This document shows, piece by piece, positions 971 through 61,305 of a DNA stretch of 64,000 nucleotides. Source of the stretch: Serripes groenlandicus (lineage: Eukaryota > Mollusca > Bivalvia > Cardiida > Cardiidae); the NCBI GenBank assembly GCA_031761405.1, contig JASEVX010000005.1, positions 32,678,869 through 32,742,868 of the forward strand, given 5' to 3'. Positions within the stretch are counted from its first letter, which is position 1. Each line of letters opens with the position of its first letter. The position numbers were made by a program, and so were the translations under genes. A model generated the notes under the pieces. The model worked only from the letters and a program-made list of their open reading frames with translations, had not been told where the DNA came from and searched no databases.

Positions 971-1200
971 TTAACTCGTTCCCTCATACGACAATTCTTC
1001 AGCAGACGATTTTGAACATATTTTGTCAAAAAATAGAAAATCTCTTTAATTGAATGGATAACCTATGACTAAAAGTGGAAAACATTGTGGCAAAAGGAGA
1101 AATTGCTCGTTTTGAGCAATTTCTTCTTTTGTCACAATGTTTTCAAAAAGCCGTCTGCTGAAGAGGCGTCAGAAAGCGTCTATATGAGGAAAAGGGTTAA
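971..1200 (-). mobile_element. Family A TTAA MITE, full length
   Basis: The element runs from TTAA (971-974) to TTAA (1197-1200). Its ends read inward as mirror images: left 'ttaactcgttccctcata', right 'tatgaggaaaagggttaa'. A central palindrome lies near 1103-1140 (ggagaaattgctcg / gagcaatttcttc). There is no coding capacity. TTAA duplications with CCC...GGG ends are the signature of piggyBac transposition, and Kolobok also uses TTAA, so this is inferred to be a non-autonomous derivative. Subterminal CTGCAGCAGACG-like motifs occur near both ends. It shares its right TTAA with the next element. Confidence 0.85.
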
Positions 1201-1410
1201 CTCGTTCAGCGCCAATGGCAATATTGAGCTTTTTGCAAACAATACAGATTAAGGTGAGTCAGCTCGTAACGAGCTGTCTCCCCTGAAATCAGCATTGTTC
1301 GGCTTTTAGTTATCAAAATATTTCAGAACTCCCTAAAACATGAAAATAGAGTCGTCCAATTTTTAACATGGAAGAGTCTACTTTAAATAATATGGCGCTG
1401 AAAGAGTTAA
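1197..1410 (+). mobile_element. Family B TTAA MITE, full length
   Basis: Terminal inverted repeats of about 17 bp: 'ttaactcgttcagcgcc' and 'ggcgctgaaagagttaa'. The centre is a palindrome around 'cagctcgtaacgagctg' (about 1260-1276) with outer arms 'aaacaatacagatt'. It is non-coding, 214 bp, and shares its left TTAA with the family A copy and its right TTAA with the next element. Confidence 0.85.
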
Positions 1411-1623
1411 TGGCGTTTATACTTTTCCAAATTAAATGACGCGTTTGCAGCAGACAATTCTCAAATACATTGTGACTAAGAAGAAATTGTTAAAATATTG
1501 AGAAAATTCTCCTTTTGCAATAAATATGTATTCTTTTTTATTTATATAGATTTTCATATACTTTGTTCTCTATATACTTTAACTTGGTCTGTTGACTATT
1601 TGTTTTTAGTGGGAAAGGGTTAA
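1407..1623 (+). mobile_element. Family A MITE, degenerate
   Basis: Starts at the TTAA that closes the family B copy and ends in 'gtgggaaagggttaa'. The left end has drifted, but 'gacgcgtttgcagcagac' and the decayed hairpin (gaagaaattg ... attctccttttgc) identify it. Confidence 0.65.
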
Positions 1624-2384
1624 GAGAGAGCGTCTGTCCGAAAGTAGTGAACTATTGTATGAGTTATATCTTTAATGTTTAACACACGCAAACTTACTAC
1701 AAATGCATTTCGCCAAACCACTTCCCTGTGTGTTTGTTTGAAGTAAATACAAATAAACTCACCCAAACAGATATATGGAAGAGTACATTGTATAGACACA
1801 GGGTCCCTCTAAGAGTTTAATGGTTAATCCATCATTAGTCTAAAGATCACGTGTGGGTAATCAGAAGTAGACATGAAGAAAATCATCGGCGCGTGTTTCA
1901 AAGCAGATGGGATTTGCAGAACCCCAGACCTCTCTTCCATAATTTGTTTATTTAGCTAATGGAACGCAGTAAAATCCTTTATGCTGTCGTGCTGCGAGGT
2001 ATGCTCGCGTATATAAATCCTTTTACCCATAACATTAATCTTGTCGTTCTTTGAGGTAGAGGACGTTAACAAATGGTGATGATTTGATACCTAGAGTGTT
2101 CTCTCAAAAAAGATCAACATATATTTATTTTGATAATATGAACACTATTATAATTGTACAATATAGCCGTGTACGAATATTACTTTGATTATATTGAAGT
2201 ATTTCATTGTTTTCTTCTCCCAAATAGTGCAGATGTGAACCAGTAAAGAAATTAACATAGACTATTCTTGAAAATAAAAGGAAACATACTTTTTGTTTAA
2301 GCGTTCCTATCTTCTGGCGTTTTGTTCCCGAAACGACCGAATTAACATAAGCGTTGTTTGAAGAATAAATTCTTAAAATTGCAG
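1624..2384. other. Stretch with no recognised feature
   Basis: AT-rich sequence. Open frames are short and have no convincing protein character. Confidence 0.45.
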
Positions 2385-2464
2385 ACAAGAAGAAAACATC
2401 GGGAGCAAATGGAATTATGTCTTTGATTCTACCGCGGAGGTTAAAGTCATCGATCGGAAGATGG
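2385..2464 (+). other. Candidate internal coding exon (weak)
   Basis: An 80-bp interval lies between a possible acceptor ('aaaattgcag', ending 2384) and a strong consensus donor ('gtgagt', 2465-2470). One frame is open throughout and gives 26 residues of ordinary composition, beginning QEENIGSKWNYVFD. I do not recognise the protein. No partner exon was found and a chance match is quite possible. Confidence 0.2.
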
Positions 2465-2534
2465 GTGAGTGTGCGTCACTTTGTTGTTCCATTTCAACCG
2501 AATACATAATTAGAAGCCTAATCAGCGCTAAATA

Positions 2535-2672
2535 TTAGATGGGCGGCGCTCTCCGAAAAACGACCGTAGGGAATTTGCGACCACTCTTGATAGAGACCAG
2601 CAGGCGCATTCGCGCAGTCTTATCTGGATCTGCAATGTTCGTCAATTTGTCATAAACGACTTCAAGAACCCC
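2535..2672 (-). other. Candidate terminal coding exon (weak)
   Basis: Read on the minus strand, a pyrimidine-rich acceptor ('tcctcctgcttaacag') precedes 45 open codons ending in TAA. The peptide starts GVLEVVYDKLTNIADPDK and ends RKFPTVVFRRAPPI. The balanced composition looks coding, but I recognise no family and no upstream exon. It lies on the opposite strand from the candidate exon just to its left. Confidence 0.2.
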
Positions 2673-3221
2673 CTGTTAAGCAGGAGGACCCATTTCTATC
2701 CTTGATCGGTCTGAGTCCACACACGTGGTAATAAAAAAAAGGTTGGATTTCCTTGGACACTAATCAAATATACGGAATTAACATGTTCATAGCACCAATC
2801 ATATTGACCAACCAGAACAAAAACAGATACAGTATCTAAACAAAACATTTTCTGAGAACACCAAAAGCTTTCCATTTTGCATTTTTAATGAACTTCGTAG
2901 TAAACATTCTTGTGCTAATTCAACTTTGTCGCACCAAAGTTATTTCTGAATTCGTTTAACCTTGATTTTGCATATTACACATGGTTTCGTCAAAACGTTT
3001 CACATTCTTGGCATAGTTTGATGAAGCTAAATGTCTGTAACGTTTAAGATAGAGTTTATAGGTTGCCTGATAGATCCCGAGATAAAATTCCAGGAATTAT
3101 AAAACGTAATCAAAACCGTTTGCCTGGAATTAACAGCGATATGTTATGAGCTAACATTAAACTTGCATTATCCACTTGGATACCTTCAAAACTAGGGATC
3201 ACTGACTGAGCCCTTCACTAA
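2673..3221. other. Stretch with no recognised feature
   Basis: AT-rich, with no repeat end or long frame seen. Confidence 0.45.
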
Positions 3222-3470
3222 ATGAGCCGTTCCACGAGAAAACCAACATTATGGACCCTGCGTAATGTATCGACCCAGATCAGCCTGCGCAGTCCGCGCA
3301 GACTAATCTGGGTCGACACATTCCGTCTCAGAGGGATATAGGTATAGGGTAATGATTCATAAAACAGAAAATCTACTGGAGGCGACAAGTGTCTGGTTTA
3401 CTCTGCGCAGACTGATCTGGGTCGATACATTACGCAGACTCCGCAATGTTGGTTTTATCGTGGGACGGCT
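3222..3470 (-). mobile_element. Family E fold-back MITE
   Basis: Ends 'atgagccgttccacgagaaa' and 'tttatcgtgggacggct' are inverted copies of each other. The subterminal blocks 'gcgtaatgtatcgaccc' and 'gggtcgatacattacgc' are also inverted copies, so almost the whole element can fold on itself. It is non-coding and GC-richer than its surroundings because of the 'cagcctgcgcagtccgcgcag' type blocks. The superfamily is unclear. ATAT flanks in several copies allow a TA target site, as in Tc1/mariner elements, but do not prove it. Confidence 0.8.
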
Positions 3471-3572
3471 TTTAAAAATGTTGTTGTCGGCTTTCAAATG
3501 GGAAAATAAATTTGAACATATTGCTTCGGTGCAGATTTAATAATATTGTTGGGGATCGTTGAAGACATATGT

Positions 3573-3831
3573 ACCAAGGAAAGATCGTGATCTGGAGGTC
3601 ACGGGTTCGATACCCGGTTGCGGCGACATTCTTTCGGGCGATGTTTTCCATTGCCTCTCACCTCTGATCTATGTGAGAAAGTAGTCAGTGGCTTCGAAAG
3701 AATGTTGTGTAAGTACTGGTGTGGGAAAGCCAGGAAAACATGGGTAGGTGCACTGACCGCCGTGATATGACCAAAGCTGTTGAAAGCGGCGTTAAACTCC
3801 AAACAAACAAACAAACAAAACCAAGGAAAGA
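3573..3831 (+). mobile_element. tRNA-derived SINE with 12-bp target duplication
   Basis: The body (3585-3819) is flanked by perfect 'accaaggaaaga' copies at 3573-3584 and 3820-3831. The head is 5'-truncated and keeps only the B-box half ('ggttcgatacc'). The body includes 'tggtgtgggaaagccagg' and 'ccgtgatatgacc', followed by 'gcggcgttaaa' and an (AAAC)n tail. The perfect duplication shows LINE-type retrotransposition. Among the SINEs here this insertion has the best preserved boundaries, which suggests it is young. Confidence 0.9.
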
Positions 3832-4693
3832 CTTACTCCCAATGCTTTCTAACTACAATGCCCTTATAAGAGTTTCCTTTCTACATTTACAGTAGGAAAA
3901 TACTAACTCAATGTATATTAAAATGTTTATTCGAATGTTTACTGTCTAGTAGAACAACAGCAAAATAGTGCACACAGTGTGAAAGAAATTTCTTATTTGT
4001 AAACAATCCGTTCTCATTTCCGAATCGCCAAGGTTGCTGCCACATCGCTGTTTTCCAATGATATTTCCGATAAATTTCCAATGTCTATCAAGGAAGGAAA
4101 TTCGAACATCTGTAAAAATAAAGGAAAGGAAAAAACACCCTTATCAATGAAAAGCAGGTTATTTCCTCACTTGAAGTTTTGCTAAATAGATTCGTTTATT
4201 TCCTTCCTGTTTTTATATCCTTTTTAAATATTTTCAAGATTGAAATGATAGCGTGCTTTATGATAAGCACTTATATCCGAGTTTAGATTTTAATGATATA
4301 CAATGGTATAGTTGTAGAAACGTGTCCATTTTATCAATTTATAGAGATTTATCATTTTTCTGCCTTGATATTTTCATTTGTTGTATTAGGGGAAGGATGA
4401 ACTGAAACGTTTCTTTAACCGTTAACGGTACCCACGAAGTCCCTGACACAGAACACCAAAGTCCTCGTTCGTATCGGAGGTCAGTTACTGTTCCCATGCT
4501 ACACTGTGCTGTGATCAGATAGCATTACACGATAACTTGTAAAGTATCACTGAATAGCATGGATCTGGTTACAGAGTTATCACGTATCTGATAACTCAAA
4601 CATGTTTATCCTAGTGTTATCGTTTTTGCCAAATGCATTTGTATCTATGTCTGTTTACGGTGTTAGTTTTACTTATTTCAATGGGAGAAAGAT
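3832..4693. other. Stretch with no recognised feature
   Basis: AT-rich sequence with no identifiable repeat or gene. Confidence 0.45.
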
Positions 4694-4953
4694 TAATTGG
4701 TTGGTGTTTTACGCCGCTTTCAACACATTTTCAGTTATATCACGGCGTTTCCTGGATAAGTTACCAGTACTACTGGTCCATTTATCCTTACACCAGCCAG
4801 TCAGTCGTCATGCTGTCCCCGCAACCCCCTGGGGACCAAGGAGGGCAGCCACAACTACATTGTTTTAAAGTGTTGGCATGACCCGGCCGGGGATCGAACC
4901 CGCGACCTCTAAAACCCGAGGCGGGCGCTCTACCACTACACCGCCGAGGCGGG
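4694..4953 (-). mobile_element. tRNA-headed SINE, near full length
   Basis: Read on the minus strand, it begins with a tRNA-like head carrying an A box ('tgtagtggtagagcg') and a B box ('ggttcgatccc'), the internal RNA polymerase III promoter. It continues with a 'ggaccagtagtactggtaac' body and ends 'gcggcgtaaaacaccaa'. The bottom end of this SINE type is the sequence amplified in the array at 15.1-16.1 kb. Confidence 0.85.
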
Positions 4954-5197
4954 TCTGCAAAGGAAGATGGATCGCAGCTGCACATACCGAGACGAAAGGA
5001 GCGAAGCCCATCACATTGTTTCCTTCGTTCATCTTGTTTGGAAACACCGTTCGAAAATGTTTGGATAAAATACATTGATATAGGACAAAGTTTAACGCCC
5101 GTGGACCTAGAGTATACAATTTCCCATCCTGTGGGGTATATTAGCCACAGATGGGAGGAGGTTCAGACACAACAAACAAACAACCTCTCTGATTTCT

Positions 5198-5410
5198 TTA
5201 ACTCTTTCAGAGCCAAAGGCAATATTGAGCTTTTTGCAAACAATACAGATTCAGGTGAGTCAGCTCGTAACGAGCTGTCTCACCTGCAATCTGCATTGTT
5301 TGGCTGTGAGTTATAAAATATTCCAAAAATCCTATAACATGAAAATAGAGTCGTCCGAATTTGAACATGGAAGAGTCTACTTTAAACAATTCGGCACTGA
5401 AAGAGTTAAA
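5198..5410 (+). mobile_element. Family B TTAA MITE, full length
   Basis: TTAA to TTAA, 213 bp. Ends 'ttaactctttcagagcc' and 'ggcactgaaagagttaa'. The central palindrome around 'cagctcgtaacgagctg' has arms extending through 'aggtgagt' and 'aatctgcattgttt'. Confidence 0.85.
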
Positions 5411-5522
5411 CAGAATATTTAAAACATCAAGTCCCCTATATATATATTCAACTTTGTCGCACCACTAGAAAAGTAATTTTGCCAAGGACGTAGCCGAGAC
5501 ATATAAACACATACATGTATAT

Positions 5523-5747
5523 CGAGAAACGGTTGTAACTAAAAAACTATTTTGAAAAACCCTGGTTTAGGGGCAAGTTTGACCCCTTTGTAAACAATGC
5601 AAATTTAGGTGCCATTGCTCAGAACGAGCAATGGCACCTAAATTTCCATTGTTTACCAAGAAAAATGATTTAACGATTATAGAGACTTTATGGCGAGGTG
5701 ATTAACCTTGGTAAAAAAATACTAATTTTAGTTACAACCGTTTCACG
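5523..5747 (+). mobile_element. Family C MITE
   Basis: Ends 'gaaacggttgtaactaaaa' and 'ttttagttacaaccgtttc' are inverted copies. There is no TTAA at the termini. The long central palindrome reads 'taaacaatgcaaatttaggt', then 'gccattgctcagaac', then its mirror, ending 'aaatttccattgttta'. The outer arm matches family B and the inner loop region matches family A. Confidence 0.85.
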
Positions 5748-6381
5748 CCAAGCCCTCGATTTGTCTCTGGACATAGGAAGTGTGGTTTGCCATGGCCGCA
5801 AACAGTGTAATACTAGCATCCGATCCTATGCTATACGATTTGTTTGGAACCATTTCTTTTTTCTGTTGAATACATACAACTTACATTATTAAGTTTGATT
5901 GTTGTCAAGCTGTTGTTTACTTTATGTAGGAGTTTTCTAGGAATAAAAATGAAATGAAACGAAAAATGTCGACCAAGAATAGACCAGGAACGATGTGCTC
6001 ACATTTCCTTTTATCTAAACCATTGGTATTAATATATACGGAGATTTCACAACGCAATAAAATAGTATAAAGAATGCGCAATGTAAATCAACAACAATAG
6101 CTCATATTACTTACTGCGGGTCATATGATTTCAGTCCGTATGTGTGACATGATACATGTGATATACAGAGTTCAAAATCCTACTTAGCTAGACAGAGGCT
6201 AATTTTAGCGAGTGCAAAGTTGAATGTCCGTGCTGTCTGTATGCTATTTCATTGTCTGGGAGGCCAATAACTTGTATTTGAACGGAACAGACACAAAACA
6301 AACAAATATAACCACGGGGTACAATTAAATATGCCCAGCCACACGGAAATCTACTCTCGTAGTCTGAAACCATAATACTAA
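5748..6381. other. Stretch with no recognised feature
   Basis: AT-rich, with no supported gene or repeat. Confidence 0.45.
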
Positions 6382-6943: not shown

Positions 6944-7160
6944 TTAACTATTTCACTGCCGAATTTCACAAAGTCGACTCTTTCGGCATGTGGAAACAAT
7001 AGACCACACCATGTTCCGTCTAACAGGAAATTTGGTAAAACGTAATGTCTAAGTGGCAAACAATGCAGATTTCAGGCGAGACAGCGCGTTATGAGCTGTC
7101 TCACATGAATCTGCATTCTTTGCAAAAGCATTTTATAGCCTTTGGCAGCGAAAGAGTTAA
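6944..7160 (-). mobile_element. Family B TTAA MITE, reverse orientation
   Basis: TTAA at 6944-6947 and 7157-7160. The right end 'ggcagcgaaagagttaa' is near consensus. The hairpin region 7055-7130 is 'caaacaatgcagatttcagg' followed by its mirror. Confidence 0.8.
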
Positions 7161-9175: not shown

Positions 9176-9404
9176 TTAACCCTTTCCTACATATAGACGC
9201 TTTCTGACGCCTCTGGAGCAGACGGCTTTTGAAAACATTGTGACAAAAGAAGATATTGCTCAAAACGAGCAATTTCTCCTTTTGCCACAATGTTTTCAAC
9301 TGTATTCTTTAGTTACATATTTATCTAAAGAGATTTTTCATATTTTTGTCTAATTGTTTTCAAAGTCGTTGGCTGCAGATGTGCTGTATGTGGGAAAGGG
9401 TTAA
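9176..9404 (+). mobile_element. Family A MITE, full length
   Basis: 229 bp, TTAA to TTAA, ends 'aaccctttcctacata' and 'tatgtgggaaagggtt'. The core 'attgctcaaaacgagcaat' is intact. Confidence 0.88.
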
Positions 9405-9623: not shown

Positions 9624-9813
9624 TTAACCCTTTCCCTCATACGACAATTCTGCAGCAGACGACTTTGAACATATTTTGCCAACACATAGAAAAATCTTTA
9701 TAATAGAATGGATAACCTATGACTAAAAGTGGAAAACATTGTGGCAACAGGAGAAATTGATCATATTGAGCTGCAGAGGCATCAGAAAGCGTCTATATGA
9801 GGGAAAGGGTTAA
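9624..9813 (-). mobile_element. Family A MITE, internally deleted
   Basis: Both ends and both TTAAs are intact, but about 40 bp covering the right half of the hairpin is gone: 'gagaaattgatcatattgag' joins directly to 'ctgcagaggcatcag'. Loss of a palindrome arm is typical of replication slippage. Confidence 0.85.
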
Positions 9814-12055: not shown

Positions 12056-12277
12056 TTAACCCTTTCCCTCATATAGACGCTTTCTGACACCTCTGCAGCA
12101 GACGGCTTTTTGTAAACATAGTGACAAAAGTAGAAATTGCTCAAAACGAGCAATTTCTCCTTTTGCCACAATGTTTTCCACTTTTAGTCATAGGTTATCC
12201 TAAGAAATTTTCTATTGTTTGAGAAAATATGTTCAAAGTCGTCTGCTGGAGCATTTTTCTATGTGGGAGAGGGTTAA
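12056..12277 (+). mobile_element. Family A MITE, full length
   Basis: TTAA at both ends. The core 'gaaattgctcaaaacgagc' is intact, with 'ctgcagcagacggc' on the left. Confidence 0.88.
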
Positions 12278-12528
12278 AGTGTTGGGCATCTCTTTTCGGT
12301 ATCTGTAGATGTTTTCCACATCAAAGCAACCCGTCGTTAACAGCCATGAAAACAGACAAAAGATCGGAAAAACTTCAAACAGTAACGCGCGTATGTCACA
12401 AAACATGCTTTAATGGGTTTCTTAATGACCTCTCCACTGTATCTCTCCCTGCAACATTGTTGTTTACGTATCTAAGCGTGATATGCTTACAATAGAACCC
12501 TTACCTCCGTTCCATTTCGAGGTCTTAG

Positions 12529-12756
12529 CGTGAAACAGTTGTAACTAAAAACCTATTTTGAAAACCCTGGTTTAGGGGTAATTTTTGACCCTTTTGTAAA
12601 CAATGCAAATTTAGGTGCCATTGCTCAGAACGAGCAATGGCACCTACATTTCCATTGTTTACAAAGAAAAAATGAGTTAACGTTTATAAAGACTTTATGG
12701 CGAGGTGATTAACCTTGGTAAAAAAAAATACCAAATTTAGTTACAACCGTTTCACG
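12529..12756 (+). mobile_element. Family C MITE
   Basis: Ends 'cgtgaaacagttgtaact' and 'agttacaaccgtttcacg'. Internal sequence and the perfect inner palindrome 'ccattgctcagaacgagca' match the copy at 5523. The bases AG before and CT after may extend the inverted repeat. Confidence 0.87.
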
Positions 12757-12829
12757 CTCTCTTTCAATCGTCTCGATTTGCGTCATGTCATCGGAGAATC
12801 AACAGCAGTGTTTTTTTTTCTGACAATGT

Positions 12830-14861: not shown

Positions 14862-15081
14862 TGTTAAATCACGGCTTTTCCTGGGTAAATAACCTCATCT
14901 ACCGGTATGATTTTATCATAACACCGATGCACCAGTCGTATTGCTATCCCCGCAACCATGAACGCCAAGGAAGGACGCCATTGTTGCCATGTGTAAAGTC
15001 TTCGGAATGACCAAACCGGGGATGGAACCCTGGTCTCCAACTCCAAATGCAGACGCTCTTACCACTACGCCATGGAGACGT
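14862..15081 (-). mobile_element. tRNA-headed SINE, 3' end truncated
   Basis: Minus-strand reading: head 'ccatggcgtagtggtaagag' (A box), B-box-like 'ggttccatccc', body ending at 'ttacccaggaaaagccgtga'. It stops where the neighbouring plus-strand SINE's array begins to resemble it. Confidence 0.75.
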
Positions 15082-15094
15082 CTGGTTCTTCACA

Positions 15095-16070
15095 AGTTAC
15101 GACTAACTGGCTGGTATCAGTAGTACTGGTAACTTACCCAGGAAACACCGTGATATAACTGAACACTTGTTGAACACGACGTAAAACACCGTGATATAAC
15201 TGAACACTTGTTGAACACGACGTAAAACACCGTGATATAACTGAACACTTGTTGAACACGACGTAAAACACCGTGATATAACTGAACACTTGTTGAACAC
15301 GACGTAAAACACCGTGATATAACTGAACACTTGTTGAACACGACGTAAAACACCGTGATATAACTGAACACTTGTTGAACACGACGTAAAACACCGTGAT
15401 ATAACTGAACACTTGTTGAACACGACGTAAAACACCGTGATATAACTGAACACTTGTTGAACACGACGTAAAACACCGTGATATAACTGAACACTTGTTG
15501 AACACGACGTAAAACACCGTGATATAACTGAACACTTGTTGAACACGACGTAAAACACCGTGATATAACTGAACACTTGTTGAACACGACGTAAAACACC
15601 GTGATATAACTGAACACTTGTTGAACACGACGTAAAACACCGTGATATAACTGAACACTTGTTGAACACGACGTAAATCACCGTGATATAACTGAACACT
15701 TGTTGAACACGACGTAAAACACCGTGATATAACTGAACACTTGTTGAACACGACGTAAAACACCGTGATATAACTGAACACTTGTTGAACACGACGTAAA
15801 ACACCGTGATATAACTGAACACTTGTTGAACACGACGTAAAACACCGTGATATAACTGAACACTTGTTGAACACGACGTAAAACACCGTGATATAACTGA
15901 ACACTTGTTGAACACGACGTAAAACACCGTGATATAACTGAACACTTGTTGAACACGACGTAAAACACCGTGATATAACTGAACACTTGTTGAACACGAC
16001 GTAAAACACCGTGATATAACTGAACACTTGTTGAACACGACGTAAAACACCGAACAATCAATTAATCTGT
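15095..16070 (+). mobile_element. SINE 3' body with expanded tail
   Basis: The plus-strand SINE body starts 'acgactaactggctggtatc' and 'agtagtactggtaacttacc'. It then runs into 22 copies of its own 3' segment and closes with the expected 'caatcaattaat' tail near 16056. The head is absent. Confidence 0.8.
15143..16052. repeat. 41-bp minisatellite from a SINE 3' end, about 22 copies
   Basis: Each unit reads 'aaaacaccgtgatataactg' followed by 'aacacttgttgaacacgacgt'. I saw a single substitution in the whole array (near 15678), so it is extremely uniform. The unit is the normal bottom of the SINE ('acaccgtgatataactgaa...gcggcgtaaa'). Because 41 is not divisible by 3, the peptide repeats every 41 residues, and frames stay open by chance, giving three long minus-strand frames (up to 315 codons) that are not genes. 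Confidence 0.95.
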
Positions 16071-16106
16071 TCGAATTGTAGGAGGACAGTGAAGGCTCAT
16101 GTTAGA

Positions 16107-16315
16107 ATAACCGTTTCCCTCATACAACAAAACTGCAGCAGACGACTTTGAAAAACATTGTGACAAAAACCTGAAAAGTCTCCACTAAAGATAGCTTAAG
16201 TGTTATATAAAATTGTAAACATCGTGGCCAAAGGAGAATCTAATTGTTAATCATGAGCAATTTCCCCTTTAGCCACAATGTCGTCAAAATGCGTCTGCAT
16301 GTGGGAAGGGGTTAA
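16107..16315 (-). mobile_element. Family A MITE
   Basis: 'ccgtttccctcatacaac' to 'tgtgggaaggggttaa', with core 'gttaatcatgagcaatttcc'. The left TTAA has become ATAA. Confidence 0.8.
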
Positions 16316-16448: not shown

Positions 16449-16681
16449 ATAACCCTTTCACACAAACAGACGCCATTTGACGCACCAACAGCTAACGACA
16501 TTTGAAAACATTGTAACAAAAGTAGAAATTGCTCATCATGAGCAATTTCTACTTTTGACACAATATTTTCAACTATACTCAATAATTATACTTTCAATTA
16601 TAGAAATTTTCTATATTTTCACTAGATTTCCATTTCAAAATCGCCTGCCTCCGATATGAATTACACGTGGGAAAGGGTTAG
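16449..16681 (+). mobile_element. Family A MITE with perfect core hairpin
   Basis: 'aaccctttcacacaaac' to 'cacgtgggaaagggtta'. The core 'gtagaaattgctcat' / 'atgagcaatttctac' is a perfect inverted repeat around one C. Terminal TTAAs have mutated to ATAA and TTAG. Confidence 0.82.
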
Positions 16682-18892: not shown

Positions 18893-19123
18893 TTAACCCT
18901 TTCCCTCATACGACAATTCTGCAGCAGACGACTTTGAGCATATTTCGTCAAAAGAAATGAAAATCTCTATAATTGAATGAATAATCTATGACTTAAAGTG
19001 GAAAACATTGTGTCAAAATGAGTAATTGCTCGTTTTGAGCAATTTCCACTTTTGTCACTATGTTTTCAAAAAGCCGTCTGCTGCAGAGGCATCAGAAAAC
19101 GTATATATGAGGGAAAGGGTTAA
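18893..19123 (-). mobile_element. Family A MITE, full length
   Basis: 231 bp, TTAA to TTAA, ends 'aaccctttccctcatacg' and 'tatgagggaaagggtt'. Core 'attgctcgttttgagcaat' is intact. Confidence 0.9.
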
Positions 19124-25375: not shown

Positions 25376-25618
25376 TTAACCCCACCCTTTCCGACATACA
25401 GCACATTTGCAGCAGACGACTTTGAAAACATAGTGACAAAAACCCTGAAAAGTCTCAATGAAAGATAGCTTAATTGTTAAATAAAGTTGACAACATTGTG
25501 GCCAAAGGAGAAATTGCTCATCATGAGCAATTTCTCCTTTGGCCACACTGTTTCAAAAGTCGTCTACTGCTATTGCGTCAAAATGCGTCAAAATGCGTCT
25601 GCAGGTGGGAAAGGTTGT
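25376..25618 (-). mobile_element. Family A MITE with longest perfect palindrome
   Basis: 'ttaaccccaccctttccg' to 'gtgggaaaggttgttg'. The core at 25498-25546 is a perfect inverted repeat: two 24-nt arms ('gtggccaaaggagaaattgc' to 'tcat') around a single C. Both arms carry GGCC in place of the family's GGCA, a matched change. 'gcgtcaaaat' is tandemly doubled on the right. Confidence 0.88.
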
Positions 25619-29173: not shown

Positions 29174-29350
29174 TTAACCCTTTCGCTTCAAATGGCTATT
29201 GAAGACTGTTGCAAACAATGCAGATTCGGGTGAGACAGCTCGTAAGGAGCTGCTCCTCCTGAAATATGCAGTGTTTGCCACTGAAACATTAAAACTTACT
29301 AAAGTTCCTTTCACGCAATATTTTTGATGTTTTGTTTGTGTTTCAGTTAA
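29174..29350 (+). mobile_element. Family B MITE, right end lost
   Basis: 'ttaaccctttcgcttcaaa' and the core 'cagctcgtaaggagctg'. The right side lacks the GGCGCTGAAAGAG terminus but still abuts the TTAA that starts the next copy. Confidence 0.65.
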
Positions 29351-29856
29351 GTCTTTCGCTGCTAAAGGCAATTAAAGGCTTTTGTAAACAATGCAGATTT
29401 CAGGAGAGACAGCTCGTAACGAGCTGTCTCTCCTGAAATCTGCATTGTTTACCATTTAGACCTTGCATTTTGTCGAGTCCCGGTAGCTCAGTCGGTAACG
29501 ACGCGGGCTGTCAATTCAGGGGTTGTGAGATCGAATCCCGGCTCGGCCAACTTTCTTTCCGACGTTTGACAAAAGTCATTGCGACATGCGTCATTTGTCT
29601 TCCACCAATGTACTAAGTCTATGTGGAAAAGCAGCCAGTTGCTTGGAAAGATTGTTGTGTGGAGTACTGGTGTGCGAAAACCAGGAAACATATGAGTAGG
29701 TGAACTGGCCGCCGTAATATGACTGAGAAATTGTTAAAAACGGCGTTAAACCCCAATCAATCAATCAATCAATCAAACATTACATTTTACCAAATTGCAT
29801 GTTGGATAACAAATTGAGCGGTCCAATTTTCAACATGGACTTTGTGAAAGGATTAA
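29347..29856 (+). mobile_element. Family B MITE interrupted by a SINE
   Basis: Starts 'ttaagtctttcgctgc'. The perfect palindrome 'aaacaatgcagatttcagga' ... with its mirror lies at about 29387-29451. It resumes after the SINE at about 29789 ('ccaattttcaacatggac') and ends 'tttgtgaaaggattaa'. The SINE therefore inserted after the MITE. Confidence 0.8.
29472..29779 (+). mobile_element. SINE of the 'cccggtagctcagtcgg' type, full length
   Basis: Head with A box 'tagctcagtcggtaacg' and B box 'gatcgaatccc', body 'ttctttccgacgtttgac' and 'gccagttgcttggaaagat', 3' end 'aacggcgttaaacccc' and a (CAAT)n tail. Flanks 'ttgcatttt' (29463-29471) and 'ttacatttt' (29780-29788) form a 9-bp target duplication with one mismatch. 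Confidence 0.87.
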
Positions 29857-33901: not shown

Positions 33902-34151
33902 ATATGAGCCGCCCCGCGAGAACACCAACAGTGTGGACTCTGCGTTTAGTTTCGACCCGGGTCAGCCTAAGCATGCCGCGCAGGCTAACACGGACATACA
34001 CTTTTCGCCCCCCTGAGAATTTTCTGTTTCAGGAATCATTACTGTATACCTCTATCCTCCGGAGACGGAATGTGTCGGCCCGGATAAGCCTGCGCGGACT
34101 GCGCAGGCTGATCCGGGCCGACACATTACGCAGATGCGGGGCGGCTCAAAT
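33902..34151 (+). mobile_element. Family E MITE
   Basis: 'atatgagccgccccgcgag' to 'cagatgcggggcggctcaaat'. The inner part of the right repeat (TTGGTTTTCTC) is deleted. Confidence 0.85.
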
Positions 34152-34187: not shown

Positions 34188-34367
34188 TTAACCCTTTACC
34201 TCATATAGACGCTTTCTGACGCCTCTGACAAAGCGTGCAATTTCTCCTTTTGCCACAATGTTTTCCACTTTTTGTCATAGGTTATCCATTCAATTATACA
34301 GACTTTCTATAACAAAATGTGTTCAAAGTCGTCTGCTGCAGAAATGTCGTATGAGGGAAAGGGTTAA
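34188..34367 (+). mobile_element. Family A MITE, hairpin deleted
   Basis: TTAA to TTAA with 'ctgacgcctctgacaaagcg': about 50 bp, including the left hairpin arm, are missing. Confidence 0.85.
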
Positions 34368-34757: not shown

Positions 34758-34829
34758 GGGGATATAGCTCAGTGGTAGAGCATTCGATTGCAGATCGAGA
34801 GGTCCCTGGTTCGAACCCGGGTGTCCCCT
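34758..34829 (+). tRNA. tRNA-Cys (GCA)
   Basis: A 72-nt cloverleaf with every arm paired: acceptor GGGGATA/TGTCCCC, D arm GCTC...GAGC, anticodon stem TTCGA/TCGAG with loop TTGCAGA (anticodon GCA at 34790-34792), five-base variable loop, and T arm CCTGG/CCGGG with loop TTCGAAC. Discriminator base is T. The A box (tagctcagtgg) and B box (ggttcgaaccc) fit polymerase III transcription. A T run downstream ('ctttttgttttaa') could terminate. It decodes UGC/UGU and appears functional. SINE heads nearby do not fold like this. Confidence 0.95.
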
Positions 34830-35787: not shown

Positions 35788-35859
35788 GGGGATATAGCTC
35801 AGTGGTAGAGCATTCGACTGCAGGTTGAAAGGTCCCCGGTTCGTACCCGGGTGTCCCCT
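35788..35859 (+). tRNA. tRNA-Cys (GCA), T-loop variant
   Basis: 72 nt, the same acceptor and D arm as the 34758 copy. Anticodon stem TTCGA/TTGAA around CTGCAGG (GCA) keeps pairing through a G-T, and the T stem CCCGG/CCGGG is perfect. The T loop is TTCGTAC, not TTCGAAC, so the near-invariant A58 is T. This weakens the T54-A58 tertiary contact and the B box, so it may be poorly expressed or inactive. It is about 1 kb downstream of the other copy in the same direction. Confidence 0.8.
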
Positions 35860-36605: not shown

Positions 36606-36886
36606 TCAGCCGTCCCGCGAGAAAACCAACATTGTGGTCTCTCTGAAAACTTATAATGCGTAAAGTATCGACCGTATCAGCCTAAGCATGCCGCGCAAGC
36701 TTACCCGGATAGACACTTTTCGCCTCCTGTGCATTTTCTGTTTCAGGAATCATTATTCTATCCCACTATCCCCCTGAGACGGAATGTGTCGGCCCGGATC
36801 AGTCTGCGCAGACTGCGCAGGTTGATCTGGGTCGATACATTACGCAGTGGTCATAATGTTGGTTTTCTCGTGGAATGACTCATATA
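36606..36886 (+). mobile_element. Family E MITE
   Basis: 'cagccgtcccgcgagaaaac' to 'tctcgtggaatgactcatat'. An extra 'tgaaaacttata' lies near the left end. Confidence 0.85.
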
Positions 36887-42275: not shown

Positions 42276-42504
42276 TTAACCCTTTCCCTCATATAAACGC
42301 TTTCTGACGCCTCTGCAGCAGACGGCTTTTTGAAAACATAGTGACAAAAGAAGAAATTGCTCAAAACGAGCAATTTCTCCTTTGGCACAATGTTTTCCGC
42401 TTTTAGTCATAGGTTATCCATTTAATTATAGAGATTTTCTATTTTTTGACAAAATATGTTCAAAGTCGTCTGCTGCAGAATTGTCGTATGAGGGAAAGGG
42501 TTAA
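42276..42504 (+). mobile_element. Family A MITE, best-preserved copy
   Basis: 229 bp, TTAA to TTAA. 'aaccctttccctcatata' and 'cgtatgagggaaagggtt', 'tctgcagcagacggc' and 'gtcgtctgctgcagaatt' near the two ends, core 'gaaattgctcaaaacgagc'. It can serve as the family reference. Confidence 0.92.
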
Positions 42505-42988: not shown

Positions 42989-43220
42989 TTAACCTTTTCC
43001 CTAATACGAAAATTCTGCAGCAGATGTCTTTGAACATATTTTGTCAAATAATTGAAAATCTCTATAATTGTATGGATTTTAACCTTTGACTAAAAGTGGA
43101 AAACATTGTGTCAAAATCTGAAATTGCTCGTTTTGAGCAATTTCACCTTTTATTTCAATGTTTTTAAAAGCCGTCTGCAACATCAGGCGTCAAATGTCGT
43201 CTGTGTGAAGTAATGGGTTT
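42989..43220 (-). mobile_element. Family A MITE
   Basis: 'ttaaccttttccctaatacg' to 'gtgtgaagtaatgggttt'. Core 'attgctcgttttgagcaat' is intact. A stray left-end piece 'ctgacgcctctgcagcagac' (43221-43254) follows at once. Confidence 0.8.
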
Positions 43221-43383: not shown

Positions 43384-43650
43384 TTAACCCTTTACCTCAT
43401 GTAGACGCTTTCTGACGCCGCTGCAGCAGATGGCTTTTTGAAAAATAGTGACAAAAGAAGAAATTGCTCAAAACGAGCAATTTCTCATTTTGCCACAATG
43501 TTTTCAACTTTTAGTCATAGGCAATCCATTCAATTATATAGATTTTCTAGTTTTTGACAAAATATGTTCAAAGTCGTCTGCTGCAGAAGTGTCGTATGAG
43601 GGGAGGGTTAAGTCGTCTGCTGCAGAATTGTCGTATGAGGGAAAGGATTT
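43384..43650 (+). mobile_element. Family A MITE with duplicated right end
   Basis: TTAA (43384) to TTAA (43608-43611). The last 38 bp ('agtcgtctgctgcagaattg' through 'gagggaaagga') are then repeated at 43611-43650. It resembles the first step from MITE end to tandem array. Confidence 0.85.
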
Positions 43651-44098: not shown

Positions 44099-44292
44099 AG
44101 AGGTCCGGATAAGGAGGGGGTATTCAGCTCCTTTTCCCCACAATATCTTTCTTATTATTAAAGCAAACCCTATGTTGTGGGTACTCAAAAGAATCGTCTC
44201 ACTGAGACGATTCTTTTGAGTACTCACAACATAGGGTTATATGGTCAAATAAGCATTTCAGAACATGAAAAACGCCCCTTATCTAGAGCTCT
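44099..44292. mobile_element. Family D MITE with 36-nt hairpin arms
   Basis: Imperfect ends 'agaggtccggataaggag' and (inverted) 'agagctctagataagggg'. The centre 44166-44238 is a giant hairpin: 36-nt arms around one C with a single mismatch ('aaccctatgttgtg', then 'gtactcaaaagaatcgtctc'). It is non-coding. If transcribed, it would give a near-perfect dsRNA stem. Confidence 0.8.
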
Positions 44293-44446: not shown

Positions 44447-44677
44447 TTAACCCTTTCCCTCATACGGCAATTCTGCAGAAGACGACGTAGAACGTATTTT
44501 GTCAAACAATAGAAAATCTCCATAATTGAATGGATAACCTATGACAAAAAAGTGGAAAACATTGTGGCAAAAGGAGAAATTGCACGTTTTGTGCAATTTC
44601 TTCTTTTGTCACTATGTTTTCAAAAATCTGTCTGCTGCAGAGGCGTCAGAAAGCGTCTATATGAGGGAAAGGGTTAA
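44447..44677 (-). mobile_element. Family A MITE with changed core pairs
   Basis: 231 bp, TTAA to TTAA. The core is 'attgcacgttttgtgcaat': GCTC/GAGC has become GCAC/GTGC on both arms. Confidence 0.9.
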
Positions 44678-44696
44678 CATTAACTTCTATTAAAAG

Positions 44697-44879
44697 CTAA
44701 CCCTTTCCAACATATAGACGCTTTCTGGAGCCTCTGTAGTAGCATAGACGTCTTTTGAGGACATTGCTACAAAAGTAGAACTCGCTAAAAAAACAAACAC
44801 TTCATTTATAGAGATTTTTCATATCCGGCCAAGAAGTTTTAAAAGTCGTCTGCTGCATATGTGAGTGACAACGGGTTAA
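44697..44879 (+). mobile_element. Family A MITE, hairpin lost
   Basis: 'taaccctttccaacatatag' to 'gtgagtgacaacgggttaa'. The core is reduced to 'gaactcgctaaaaaaac'. Confidence 0.75.
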
Positions 44880-51138: not shown

Positions 51139-51141
51139 AGT

Positions 51142-54942: not shown

Positions 54943-55155
54943 TTAACCCTTTCAGCGCCGATTTGTTTAAAGTAGACTCTTCCATGTTCAAACTCGGACG
55001 ACTCTATTTCAGGTTATAGGATTTTTGGAATATTCTTTATAACTCACAGCCAAACAATGCAGATTTCAGGTGAGACAGCTCGTTACGAGCTGACTCACCT
55101 GAATCTGCATTGTTTGCAAAAAGCTCAATATTGCCTTTGGCGCTGAAAGAGTTAA
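54943..55155 (-). mobile_element. Family B TTAA MITE, full length
   Basis: 213 bp. Ends 'ttaaccctttcagcgcc' and 'ggcgctgaaagagttaa' are the cleanest in the window. Core 'cagctcgttacgagctg' lies within 'aaacaatgcagatttcaggt' and its mirror. Confidence 0.9.
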
Positions 55156-55908: not shown

Positions 55909-55973
55909 ACCCAATATTTCATCCTATCTTTATCAGTGTATTTCTCGTACTCACCATCATCAGGGCCGAATAA

Positions 55974-56243: not shown

Positions 56244-56667
56244 GGTCGTGGTAGAAACGCTAATAACGCAGTGGGGTCGCAGTGGGGTCGCCGCTGATCA
56301 CCGTATGGACGCCGCAGTGACGCCGTGTAAACTCAATAGAAGCTCCAAGGACGCAGTAAAAACGCGGTAAGGTCGTGTTGGGTTGGGAACGCCATACATA
56401 CACAGATCGCAGAGCACAGAACTCCGGTGTGACGGCTGACTCGAAATCTGGATTTATTTTAGAAAAATCATTGGCGTTCTCAATGCGACCATCGGCGTTC
56501 TCGAAAATATGACAGTTTAGGACGCGGTAAGGACGCCAGTCCGGTGTGACGGCAGTATAACCAAATGACACATGTATTTAAAATGAAGGAAAAGCAACGT
56601 AAAATGAGTTTTTATCAACACAAAAACTAACTGTTTTTCTCCTACTGTCTTGACTCGACCGTTCCCT

Positions 56668-56896
56668 GTGACCCTTTCCCACATACAACAATTATGCAGC
56701 TGGTGACCTTGAAAGTATCTAGGCAAACACACAGAAAAGCTGAATAAATGTAGGTTTAATTACTGAAAAAGAGTTGAACACATTGTGGCAAAAGAAGAAT
56801 TGCTCGTATTGAGCAATTTCTTCTTTTGTCACAGCGTTTTCAAAAGACGTCTACTGCAGAGGCGTCAGCAAGCGTCTATATTTGGGAAAATAGTTG
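56668..56896 (-). mobile_element. Family A MITE
   Basis: 'gaccctttcccacatacaac' to 'tatatttgggaaaatagttg'. Core 'attgctcgtattgagcaat' is nearly intact. Confidence 0.82.
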
Positions 56897-57176
56897 ACTA
56901 AATGACCATTAACGTTCTCTATTAACAAACACAGAACATGATGTGTTCAAAACTAATCATCTGTATCAGGAAAGAGATCGTTTTAACCCAAATAATCACC
57001 ATCAACTTTGTAACTTTGGAGTCAACCTATTCTGCAACTTCACAAACAAAATTATTGTAATTATTCGCTATGATCCATACCATAACGAGTGTCCTGTGAT
57101 CTCGAAAATCTACATTAAGACTTGAAATAGTTTCATCTATGTAAATGTAAATAGTAAAACGATGTTTATATAAATC

Positions 57177-58065
<889 letters not shown>

Positions 58066-58543
58066 TAATAATAAATTGCTGATGTAAATCTTAACCTTGC
58101 GGACTCATTCCAGCCTTAAATACACCGCGCATGGGAACTAGGTGAAGGCCAAGGTCATAAAAACCTCCAGACAAACAGGAGAGTAACGAGTGTAGATTCC
58201 ATTATGATAACACAAGACGTCATGTGACACAATGGGAATATTGTTCATAGTGTTTTTCCCACTGCAACTGTTTGTTGGTTATTTTGGTTGACATTGAGTG
58301 CTTCAGCACATTTTCATTATGATATCGATGTCGTTAGGTCCAAAGAGATGTAGCAACACGTCGGTACAATAGATAGTTACATGCCCTTCGAACCAACAAA
58401 GAGGTTCCCATGTTTCTTCCTCCTACGAGCAAATGTTTGAACTTTACAATTTTTCTACAAATCCATTTTGTTTGCAATTGCAAAAACATGTTTGAGGGAA
58501 AGCTAGTATGTTTCAGTAGTTTTCCATAATAGACGGCTTCGTT
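58066..58543. other. Stretch with no recognised feature
   Basis: No repeat ends or convincing frame. Confidence 0.4.
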
Positions 58544-58760
58544 TTAAACCCTTTCCCTCATACACAACAATTCTGCAGCAGACGACTTTGAACATATTTT
58601 GTCAAAAAATAGAAAATCTCCATTATTGAATGGATGACTAAAAGTGGAAAACATTGTGGCAAAAGGAGAAATTGCACGTTTTGTGCAATTTCTTCTTTTG
58701 TCACTATGTTTTCAAAAAGGCGTCTGCTGCAGAGGCGTCAGATATGGGGGAAAGGGTTAA
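58544..58760 (-). mobile_element. Family A MITE with changed core pairs
   Basis: TTAA to TTAA. Core 'attgcacgttttgtgcaat' has the same paired change as the 44447 copy. About 12 bp are missing before 'gactaaaagtgg' and again near the right end. Confidence 0.88.
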
Positions 58761-58954
58761 TGAGGTGAAAGGTTGTTTTTTACATTTAGCTGTAAACTGT
58801 TGCGTCTATCGAATGCAGGGCAACATACTTCCAAAACTGAGACCATCTGAATACAATTATTAATATTAGATCAAATTGATTATGATACATTGTAACATAA
58901 AACAAAATGGAGGTATAACACAATATTCTACCAGAAGCGGCTTTTCAAAAGGAT

Positions 58955-60240
58955 AAAAAGCAAGAGGGCCAAGACGCCCTAAATCGATCACCTGATTGAT
59001 AGTAAATTAGTTGCAAATATTTAACTGCAAATATCTGGGAAATATTTGATCAAAGAGTGCAATTGAAACCTGCAAGGAGTGGACACTGTTAAAGAAATAG
59101 CTTATCAGTAAAGGCCATTTATATCTTGAAATATAACAAGAACTTTAATAAGATTGGAATTATATTTTTTTTTTGTCATTTTGCACCTTTCCTGATGCCG
59201 CCTTGCATCCGTTGTCAACGAAATCAATATAGCTTCAACAGTTTTTTTAGAGGGCCACTTAAGGAACATTCTATCTTGAATCGGACAAGCAGATTATGGA
59301 GGAAAAGATTTTAAAGTTTGGGTATTTTCTCACTTTTTGATGCAGCAACCAAATATCTACACAGAATAAAAGTCTTTGAACAATTTAGATAGAGGACCAG
59401 CAAAGGAACATTCCTGTGAAGTTAAGTTGAAATTGGTCCATTGGAATGGTAGGAGTTGGTTGTCGTTTGTAGCTATAAGTTCAATTTACCCTTCTTGTGA
59501 TGCCGCCTTGTTGCTATGGTTTTGTAACCAATTAATACAGCTTAAAACAATTAAGTAGAGGATCATTGAAGTAAGATTCTTATTATGTATTTTTAAAATC
59601 AGACAAGCACTTTCATAAAAATGGAATTTTCAAATTTTGGAACTTTTGCCCCTTTTCTGATGCAGCCTGACTGCCATGTTTTCGAACAATCAGATATGGC
59701 TTGAACATTTTTTGTAGAGGATCATCCAAGAATATTTCTTCCAAATTATATTGGAATCTAACAGGCAGATTTGGAGAAGAGAAGTTCGGACATTTTGCCA
59801 CCTTTCTGATGCCGCAGCAACCAAAATTCTCAATGGAATTTAAGCCTTTGAACACTTTTGAAAGAGGACCACCAAAGGAACATTCCTGCAATGTTTTTTA
59901 AGATTCCTAGTATATATTCTTAAAATCAGACAGGCACTTACATAAATATGGAATTTTTGTCATTTTTGTCATTTTCCCCATTTTTCTGATGCTGCCTGAC
60001 TACAATGTTTCGACCAATCAGCATGGGCTTGAACAATTTGTGTAGAGGGGTCACTCAAGGAAAGTTTCTACCAAAATGATATTGGAATCTGACAGTCAGA
60101 TTCGGAGGAGAAGATTTTTAAAGTTTGGACATTTTGCCCCCTTTCTGATGCCGCAGCAACCGAATTCTCAATGGAATTTTTAACCTTTGAACGATTTTGA
60201 AAGAGGACCACCAAAGGAACATTCCTGTGATGTCTTGTGG
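58955..60240. repeat. Diverged tandem repeats, about 160-bp unit
   Basis: Starts 'agcaagagggccaagacgcc'. Recurring block 'agaggaccaccaaaggaaca' and variants at about 59246, 59393, 59552, 59712, 59862, 60040 and 60199. Alternate units are more alike ('gatgccgcagcaacc' vs 'gatgcagcctgactgcc'), so the real period is a dimer. Short frames on both strands repeat with it and are not supported as genes. Confidence 0.8.
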
Positions 60241-60340
60241 AAATTGTTCCTGCGGTTCAGGGGGAGATTATGTTTAAAACTAAAAGTAAACGACGGATGG
60301 ACAGAGTGTATTTGTGGGGTTATTCTCTTTCTGTTTGAAT

Positions 60341-60410
60341 CTTGTGGGTTGCACCCCACAAGTATGCTATTCATTCCGTAATTATTCCCCTTTTACGGAA
60401 TGAATAGCAT
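60341..60410. other. Two adjacent hairpins
   Basis: First: 'cttgtggg' / 'cccacaag' with a 6-nt loop (60341-60362). Second: 18-nt perfect arms 'atgctattcattccgtaa' at 60364-60381 and 60393-60410 with an 11-nt loop. They end the tandem repeat region and could be an element terminus or a transcript 3' end structure. Confidence 0.7.
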
Positions 60411-60520
60411 TAATATGCAAATGAGATACCCGTTATAAAACAAAGAAAACTAATTTTTATCTAAGTGTCTTTATAAAGGTGGTGGGTGGCGAAGTACTCG
60501 GTCACCAGGACGGACTCTGG

Positions 60521-60712
60521 TGATCTAAAAAGAAACGGGACTACATCAGGCAATCTGAATTTCTGGTAACAGTATATCATTAAAACCTATGTTGATGGAG
60601 CTCAAAAGAATCGTCTAACTGCGACGATTCCCTTAAAACGCACAACATAGTTTTGCAGGTCAAATAAAGACCTAAAAACATGAACCACAACCCCTTTTCT
60701 AGAATTCTATAA
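60521..60712. mobile_element. Family D MITE, diverged
   Basis: Central 'ctcaaaagaatcgtctaac' / 'gcgacgattcccttaaaac' and 'ctatgttg' / 'caacatag' match the 44099 copy, as do 'ggtcaaataaagac' and 'ccccttttctagaattct' on the right. The hairpin now has several mismatches. Confidence 0.65.
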
Positions 60713-60849
60713 TTTGTCACTATTTTTGGGATTACTCAATGTTCTGGTTTCATGTTGACGATTATGACATCATTAGGGATCCCAATTCTTTATTTCCGAA
60801 CTACTGTAGGCGTTTTTACTTCCGTGTATACAAGTGAAAAGACCAGGAT

Positions 60850-60936
60850 ATGTGGGAAATGAATACAGAAAGTGGAGGCGCGTCAGACGATAAGTGGTCT
60901 AATCACATCTCCGAGTTAGTGTATCGCATAAAAAAG
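60850..60936 (+). other. Candidate first coding exon (weak)
   Basis: ATG at 60850 (second ATG at 60859) opens 29 codons, MWEMNTESGGASDDKWSNH then ISELVYRIKK, ending at a possible donor 'aaaag|gtgaat' (60936/60937). The acidic, Ser-rich start looks more coding than its surroundings. No following exon was identified. Confidence 0.18.
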
Positions 60937-61077
60937 GTGAATATGCTTAGACCTCGAGGAGTTTCATGTCTATTGTTTAATGTGGCCCGAAGTTCCATTT
61001 TGAGCTTTAACCAATTAAATCGGACAGTGATAACTCTGATGAGACTGTGCGTGTGCATTCGATCGAACCTTCTCATT

Positions 61078-61305
61078 TTAACCCTTTCCCTCATATAGAC
61101 GCTTTCTGACGCCTCTGCAGCAGACGGCTTTTTGAAAACATAGTGACAAAGAAGAAATTGCACAAAACGTGCAATTTCTCCTTTTGCCACAATGTTTTCC
61201 ACTTTTTGTCATAGGTTATCCATTCAATTATGGAGATTTTCTATTTTTTGACAAAAAACGTTCAAAGTCGTCTGCTGCAGAATTGTCGTATGAGGAAAGG
61301 GTTAA
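61078..61305 (+). mobile_element. Family A MITE with changed core pairs
   Basis: 228 bp, TTAA to TTAA. Core 'attgcacaaaacgtgcaat' carries the GCAC/GTGC change on both arms, in the orientation opposite to the 44447 copy. Very close to the 42276 copy elsewhere. Confidence 0.9.

What the first reader, a model, noticed from the sequence alone, without database searches (positions are those of the whole stretch)
1197..61305. Three MITE families with different ends share parts of one central palindrome
Family A has 'attgctcaaaacgagcaat' at its centre. Family C has 'attgctcagaacgagcaat', flanked by 'aaacaatgcaaattt..aggtg'. Family B has 'aaacaatgcagattt..aggtg' around 'cagctcgtaacgagctg'. C therefore shares its inner core with A and its outer arm with B, although C's ends (CGTGAAAC...) are unrelated to the TTAA-CCC ends of A and B. 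Either the palindromes descend from one module moved between families by recombination or gene conversion, or they are kept alike by a shared function such as a protein-binding site or a processed hairpin RNA.
Basis: partly seen in the sequence, partly recalled or inferred. Interest (0 to 1): 0.75.

Follow-up and report, generated by a model that had tools for sequence, protein, structure and literature searches.

The report
Hairpin module shared by unrelated MITEs
Two high-copy families of small jumping DNA with unrelated ends carry the same 87-base hairpin-forming block, which the younger family probably took over once from the older; a third family clearly shares only the hairpin's tip, so this looks like part-swapping between mobile elements, and no function has been shown.

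Summary
The strings are present and the families are real. A (229-230 bp) and B (213 bp) are TTAA elements. B and C share a bounded module: B-old vs C 65/88 identical, 0/1000 shuffles, no likeness detected outside it. It includes a 19-nt non-palindromic flank (16/19), so common descent explains it better than convergent palindromes. C is young and its module forms one clade: one transfer, probably B to C. No exchange is visible now: exact patterns give C-end+C-tip 7026, C-end+B-tip 0, B-end+B-tip 5677, B-end+C-tip 0. A shares the tip; without it likeness is weak. A's outer arm also occurs unpaired in one piggyBac-like element with A's ends, so A's hairpin is probably home-made. Coral CMITEs are a precedent, described as TTAA elements only. 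Function is untested.

The parts
5523..5758 (+). family C copy (consensus 12-246 of 246, 96%)
   Evidence: BLAST of consensus; sequence
12518..12757 (+). family C copy (consensus 1-236 of 246, 95%)
   Evidence: sequence; genome relatives
5586..5660 (+). C hairpin, ATTGCTC-AGAAC-GAGCAAT tip
   Evidence: z -13.2
12593..12665 (+). C hairpin
   Evidence: z -13.1
1197..1410 (+). family B (young) copy, full length, 90%
5198..5409 (+). family B (young) copy, full length, 97%; used as genome query
54943..55155 (-). family B (young) copy, full length, 98%
6944..7160 (-). B-old copy, full length, 89%
29174..29309 (+). B-old copy, left end and hairpin, 85%
   Evidence: sequence
29347..29471 (+). B-old copy, left end and hairpin, 93%; groups with C in the module tree at 86/87 (not starred)
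29384..29452 (+). perfect B-old hairpin, 33 pairs and a 3-nt loop in the fold
   Evidence: z -16.8
971..1200 (-). A1 copy, full length, 96%
12056..12277 (+). A1 copy, full length, 90%
18893..19123 (-). A1 copy, full length, 93%
42276..42504 (+). A1 copy, full length, 97%
42989..43219 (-). A1 copy, consensus 3-230 of 230, 84%
43384..43611 (+). A1 copy, full length, 93%
44447..44677 (-). A1 copy with GCAC/GTGC tip, full length, 95%
58547..58760 (-). A1 copy with GCAC/GTGC tip, 90%
61078..61305 (+). A1 copy with GCAC/GTGC tip, full length, 97%
9176..9404 (+). A copy, full length, 88% to the A0 consensus; used as genome query
16450..16680 (+). A0 (old) copy, nearly full length, 82%
25384..25614 (-). 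A0 (old) copy, tip GCTCATCATGAGC, 81%

Best explanation
A, B and C are non-autonomous MITE families in a 1.76-Gb genome (perhaps a bivalve; the species is not given), each with a hairpin of about 67 nt left of its middle. B and C share one homologous 87-bp module (about 19 nt of left flank, the hairpin, CCA) set between unrelated ends. Shown: the module's identity and limits, different ends and target duplications, a young C, C's module as one clade, and no exchange visible today. Inferred: the module of an old B-type element was built once into an element with C ends, most simply by template switching while an excision gap in a C-type parent was repaired (a nested insertion trimmed by deletions is the alternative); the chimera then spread to about 7000 or more copies, presumably with another transposase. 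A's hairpin is probably mostly separate: its outer arm resembles the inner part of A's own end and a subterminal stretch of one piggyBac-like element with A's ends. What A shares with B and C is the 13-19 bp tip, of unresolved origin.
For: Module B-old vs C 65/88, 0/1000 shuffles; outside it 596/1000 left and 855/1000 right (B has only 20 nt on the left, so that side is a weak test). B-young vs C left half 34/40, score 28 vs null maximum 17; the 19-nt flank outside the palindrome alone 16/19, 0/4000. Without loop and GCTC B-C is still 0/1500 on both arms and 0/600. C duplication 4 bp exact in 22 of 29 loci with both ends found, never longer, none TTAA; B TTAA in 25 of 30. Median identity of incidentally met copies to their consensus: A 75%, B 76%, C 95% (144, 23 and 9 copies). 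Module tree of 40 rows (12 C): C one clade 100/100, next to window copy 29386 at 86/87, in the half that holds 3 of 5 B-old rows. Linkage: 7026 vs 0 and 5677 vs 0 exact patterns; 20 of 20 chosen cores lie nearest to their own family's ends. A: L132, TTAA to TTAA 3009 bp, 14-nt perfect inverted ends (TTAA included), PF13843 match E 2.8e-82 without stops, A's right end 78% over 88 bp; A's hairpin outer arm and the 9 nt after it 24/29 in its last 330 nt, 0/2000 shuffles (1/300 against the whole element).
Against: The direction B to C rests on relative age and on an unstarred branch with a midpoint root drawn for display; 2 of 5 B-old rows fall in the other half. A lost third donor is not excluded. 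No C-type parent without the module was found (C end hits without a core nearby: 0 of 77), so the transfer itself is not seen, and C's transposase is unknown. The A statement rests on one element of four fetched, and the gapped alignment of A's whole right half places the arm elsewhere in that element. The exact-pattern counts see only unmutated copies, and B copies with other left ends (such as B-old) are outside them.
Confidence: 0.72

Rival explanations
1. Shared function: the hairpin is kept alike in different families because it is used, for example as a protein site, a transposition enhancer or a processed hairpin RNA.
For: Between B-young and B-old consensuses the hairpin is 65/67 identical while the right spacer is 61/91 and the left spacer 15/20. 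The families keep near-perfect palindromes although their arm sequences differ. One A pair changed on both sides in 15 of 98 copies (T-A to A-T). With copies chosen by the right end, hairpin arms differ from consensus less than the left spacer in four of five sets: A0 26-28% vs 33%, B-young 3.5-3.7% vs 4.2%, B-old 19-25% vs 30.5% (5 copies), C 1.8-2.4% vs 5.2%.
Against: B-C likeness extends into 19 nt that are not palindromic. In A, single-sided changes far outnumber paired ones (773 against 70 cells, 99 copies). In A1 the hairpin arms differ more than the left spacer (19-23% vs 15%). The 97% figure comes from copies found with the core, so it is biased upward. No Rfam match but 2 tRNAs at the gathering threshold. 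No RNA or binding data exist here.
Confidence: 0.15
2. One ancestral hairpin for all three: A's core descends from the same module as B's and C's and has diverged, ends having been replaced at least once.
For: Tip GCTC-NNAAC-GAGC is common to B, C and young A; the old-A tip GCTCATAATGAGC is what CpG decay would make of B's GCTCGTAACGAGC, and two B-old-type copies (L089, L113) show exactly that string. A0-B-old and A0-C with tip 0/600. A-C left half 2/4000.
Against: With tip removed 12/600 (A0-B-old), 29/600 (A0-C), 31/600 (A0-B-young), 28-138/600 for A1; A-C right arm 315/1500, A-B 179 and 300/1500. The tip-included test also gave 0/600 for the unrelated control pair A0-E at a score of 4, so it over-calls. 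A's outer arm has another likely source in its own piggyBac-like relative.
Confidence: 0.25
3. C is a mosaic: outer arm from B, tip by recombination or gene conversion from young A.
For: C's tip equals the A1 AAAAC tip at 18 of 19 sites, and C's loop AGAAC occurs in 6 of 151 A copies, plus 1 in the opposite sense.
Against: Compared by hand with B-old, only 2 arm sites and 1 loop site group A with C, and one arm site groups A with B. Among the listed rows of 327 core variants (the list is cut) I saw none that joins both B arm sites to a C tip or the reverse; two rows have one of the two arm sites of the other family. B and C already share GCTC and AAC.
Confidence: 0.12
4. Chance likeness of short GC-capped palindromes in A/T-rich DNA.
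For: Adequate for the outer arms of A versus B.
Against: Excluded for B-C; two unrelated palindromic families from the same DNA (D, E) show no such likeness to B or C with tip removed (95 to 600 of 600 shuffles reach the score).
Confidence: 0.03

Closest known systems
CMITE families of Acropora corals (Wang et al. 2010, PMC2872659; abstract, section 10 and search passages seen)
   Same: MITE families with different TIRs share a conserved 75-bp internal region; ends CCCTTTCCC... and CCCTTTCACTGCCA resemble A's CCCTTTCCC and B-old's CCCTTTCGCTGC; linked to piggyBac-like elements; origin of the region unexplained; one element had another family's internal region.
   Different: The coral elements are described with TTAA duplications, whereas C has a 4-bp duplication and other ends. 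The words palindrom- and hairpin do not occur in that paper's main text.
piggyBac superfamily and its TTAA MITEs
   Same: A: TTAA, CCCTTTCCC ends, same ends as a PF13843 element in this genome. B: TTAA (25 of 30), CCCTTTC ends in the old form.
   Different: None of the 4 PF13843 places fetched (of 81 matches) showed a match to the B consensus; C does not fit (no TTAA).
Palindromic MITE-like repeats of Anopheles gambiae (PMC3212995, search passages seen)
   Same: Palindromic MITE-like repeats; internal regions of unknown origin, with conversion after a double-strand break named there as one possibility.
   Different: No module shared between families with unlike ends appears in the passages seen; there some families share TIRs but not interiors, the reverse of this case.

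Membership tests
piggyBac/TTAA MITE (family A) | TTAA target duplication | tested here: met
   Consensus TTAACCC...GGGTTAA; not counted copy by copy
piggyBac/TTAA MITE (family A) | CC[C/T]T terminal motif (as given in PMC2872659) | tested here: met
   CCCTTTCCC
piggyBac/TTAA MITE (family A) | Same ends as a piggyBac transposase element | tested here: met
   L132 only, 1 of 4 places fetched of 81 PF13843 matches
piggyBac/TTAA MITE (family B) | TTAA target duplication | tested here: met
   25 of 30
piggyBac/TTAA MITE (family B) | CC[C/T]T terminal motif | tested here: inconclusive
   B-old CCCTTTC at the left end; B-young CTCTTTC left, CCCTTTC from the right end
piggyBac/TTAA MITE (family B) | Same ends as a piggyBac transposase element | tested here: inconclusive
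   No B match in the 4 places fetched; the other matches were not read
piggyBac/TTAA MITE (family C) | TTAA target duplication | tested here: not met
   22 exact 4-bp duplications of 29, none TTAA
Superfamilies with 4-bp duplications such as Sola, Ginger, Chapaev (recalled) (family C) | TIR motif and related transposase | not tested
   A defining paper looked up by a recalled DOI is not held; no autonomous C element was sought
CMITE-like group (shared interior, unlike ends) | Internal region more alike between families than the ends | tested here: met
   B-C module 65/88, no likeness detected outside it
CMITE-like group (shared interior, unlike ends) | TTAA duplication in every member | tested here: not met
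   C
CMITE-like group (shared interior, unlike ends) | Homology to the coral internal region | not testable with these tools
   The section that describes it prints no internal sequence, only a figure legend and a table of ends
microRNA-like hairpin | Processed small RNAs | not testable with these tools
   No RNA data; no Rfam match other than 2 tRNAs at the gathering threshold

The most novel reading that the evidence does not exclude
The hairpin module is a portable amplification aid: it raises the mobility or survival of whatever MITE carries it, independent of the transposase, which is why hairpins of this kind sit in abundant families with two kinds of ends and why a B-type module reappears in the C burst.
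Probability: 0.1. Interest if true: 0.75.

Novelty: new variant of a known kind. Interest (0 to 1): 0.45.

Why it matters
It shows with clear limits that an internal block can pass between MITE families that differ in ends and target duplication, and that the chimera can then reach thousands of copies. That bears on an open question, where MITE interiors come from, and it parallels in another animal the unexplained pattern reported for coral CMITEs, with a new feature (a near-perfect hairpin). It also carries a practical warning: repeat annotation by internal similarity could merge B and C, while annotation by ends would separate them.

Tried and rejected
Rejected: ongoing shuffling between B and C (0 recombinants in exact counts); a further carrier family among 20 chosen cores (all nearest to B or C ends); whole-element homology of B and C; remains of B's left end in C (only AACCCT matches, 596/1000). 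Not settled: slower decay of the hairpin in copies (lower than the left spacer in four of five sets, higher in A1).

Led nowhere: exact patterns for the C and B hairpins in viral contigs (0 matches); Rfam; the paper searches on superfamily classification and on the presumed host. Six searches were aimed at a described case of this kind; only led to a close precedent (PMC2872659). In those six I saw no report of this case; subscription papers are not covered. The species was not established; a bivalve such as Dreissena is a guess from recall.

Rows and limits: counts include some window copies twice, because loci L001, L009 and L039 overlap the window; the flank scan overlaps the window in the same way through L009 and L039. 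Of the 247 core hits, 20 do not pair with their own ends (11 with none, 5 beside C ends, 4 beside B ends); by eye these are A cores, most of them degraded, some next to a B or C copy. The loci are best matches to one query and over-represent copies like it. In one search, 20 rows were chosen from the cut list, odd ones first; L095 is 6 and 6 mismatches from the B end probes and L104 matches C by its right end only. One search used 12 of 39 C copies. The threefold repeat of A's outer arm was read by eye, without a shuffle test.
Full report
What is there. The window lies in a 1.76-Gb genome of 1739 contigs, eukaryotic by its size and repeats. A systematic scan finds 25 short-loop palindromes of score 14 or more in the window against none in three block shuffles, and 54 in 199,660 bases of flanks of fetched loci, simple repeats left out (a few overlap the window). 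By eye most belong to A, B or C, and most of the rest to two other palindromic families, here called D and E.

Families. Genome searches with one copy each gave 3083 candidates for C, 2362 for B and 5055 for A at the first look, 40 scored in each. C duplicates 4 bp: 22 of 29 loci exact, none longer (ATAT 9, AAAT 6, ACAT 2, ATAC 2, AGAT 2, AATA 1); B has TTAA on both sides in 25 of 30. A splits into old A0 and young A1. B splits into B-young and B-old, the latter confirmed with 20 fetched copies. Among copies met by chance, median identity to the consensus is 75% for A (144 copies), 76% for B (23) and 95% for C (9).

The shared module. B and C align over the hairpin and over 19 nt to its left that are not palindromic: 34/40 for left flank plus outer left arm, 16/19 for the flank alone, 0/4000 shuffles each. 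With B-old the module runs 87 bp, 65/88 identical, and outside it C and B are no more alike than shuffles (596/1000 left, where B has only 20 nt; 855/1000 right). Removing loop and GCTC, which any such palindrome could share, leaves B-C at 0/1500 on each arm and 0/600. The control families D and E are not like B or C in that test (95 to 600 of 600 shuffles reach the observed score).

Family A is a weaker case. With the tip included A scores above nearly all shuffles against B and C (0-1 of 600), but so does one unrelated control pair at a low score (A0-E, score 4, 0/600), so this test over-calls. Without the tip: A0-B-old 12/600, A0-C 29/600, A0-B-young 31/600, A1-B-old 28/600, A1-C 31/600, A1-B-young 138/600; A-C left 11/1500, right 315/1500. 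The tip GCTC-NNAAC-GAGC is common to B, C and A1. The A0 tip GCTCATAATGAGC is the form that CpG decay of B's tip would give, and the same string occurs in B copies L089 and L113. A1 loops are AAAAC in 17 of 32 and AGAAC, C's loop, in 3 of 32; 11 did not fit the tip pattern. Only two or three sites therefore speak for a C tip taken from A rather than inherited.

Where A's hairpin may come from. By eye, A's outer arm resembles the inner end of its own right terminal repeat, so that the segment occurs three times in the element. The genome has 81 matches, many of them pieces, to the piggyBac transposase family PF13843. Of four places fetched, one (L132) is bounded by TTAA with 14-nt perfect inverted ends (TTAA included) that start like A, is 3009 bp long, and matches A's right end at 78% over 88 bp. 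A's hairpin outer right arm plus the 9 nt after it is found near that end without a mirror arm (24/29, 0/2000 shuffles against the last 330 nt, 1/300 against the whole element). A gapped alignment of A's whole right half in the same call put the arm elsewhere, so this is suggestive only. It would fit an origin of A's palindrome by inverted duplication of subterminal sequence.

Transfer and timing. In 247 core hits of the window and 68 loci, core type and end type agree in 133 A, 55 B and 39 C; the 20 others are A cores with no recognised ends or beside a B or C copy. Twenty cores chosen from the list, odd ones first, all lay nearest to their own family's ends. Whole-genome exact patterns give C end with C tip 3504+3522, C end with B tip 0, B end with B tip 2758+2919, B end with C tip 0, reversed-pattern controls 0. 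So no exchange is visible now; it happened before C spread. In a tree of 40 modules C (12 rows) is one clade (100/100) next to window copy 29386 (86/87, not starred), in the half that holds 3 of 5 B-old rows; the root is a midpoint for drawing.

Function. Between B-young and B-old the hairpin is 65/67 identical and the spacers 67-75%, which would fit constraint on source elements, but copies were found with the core, which biases this. Selecting copies by their right end, hairpin arms differ from consensus less than the left spacer in A0, B-young, B-old and C, and more in A1. In A, single-sided changes outnumber paired ones 773 to 70, with one clear both-sided change. No conclusion on function is possible.

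Known context. Coral CMITEs are piggyBac-type MITE families with unlike ends and a shared 75-bp interior of unknown origin (PMC2872659: abstract, section 10 and passages). The present case differs in that one carrier is not a TTAA element and in the hairpin. MITEs occupy a considerable share of bivalve genomes (PMC10294476, passages). Verdict: a real, well-bounded module shared by two families, most likely by one transfer; tip-only and unresolved for the third; a new variant of a known kind.

Noticed in passing
44166-44238: Near-perfect palindrome AACCCTATGTTGTGGGTACTC... (family D), also in the flanks of L011, L013, L032, L041 and L046; no likeness to A, B or C found.
   Followed up: partly
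3264-3322, 34069-34127, 36783-36841: Another palindromic repeat, AATGT(A/G)TCG(G/A)CC...GATCAGCCTGCGCAG... (family E); a related repeat family (D14, 24 copies) often comes in pairs about 122 bp apart.
   Followed up: no
9624-9813 and 34188-34367: Two A1 copies lack almost the same stretch (consensus 45-83 and 41-86: left spacer and left hairpin arm); either a deletion subfamily or repeated hairpin-linked deletion.
   Followed up: no
14979-16180: 41-bp tandem array with many identical units; further arrays from 20860 (18 bp), 36959 (22 bp) and 45132 (44 bp).
   Followed up: no
44447-44879: A copies in opposite orientation side by side, giving a long inverted repeat at 44638-44736.
   Followed up: no
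34758-34829 and 35788-35859: Two tRNA matches by Rfam; by eye a tRNA-like stretch also follows the B-old copy that ends at 29471 (sequence).
   Followed up: no
L098: C copy in normal orientation whose loop reads GTTCT instead of AGAAC, as if the hairpin tip had inverted.
   Followed up: no
L130 and L131: Two other PF13843 elements with long open frames (536 and 583 aa) each show an end TTAACCCTCANTATGCGGGACACAAGAATA, a different family from A.
   Followed up: no
44579-44597, 58671-58689 and 61157-61175: A tips with GCAC/GTGC in place of GCTC/GAGC: both arms changed together, in 15 of 98 A copies at that pair.
   Followed up: partly
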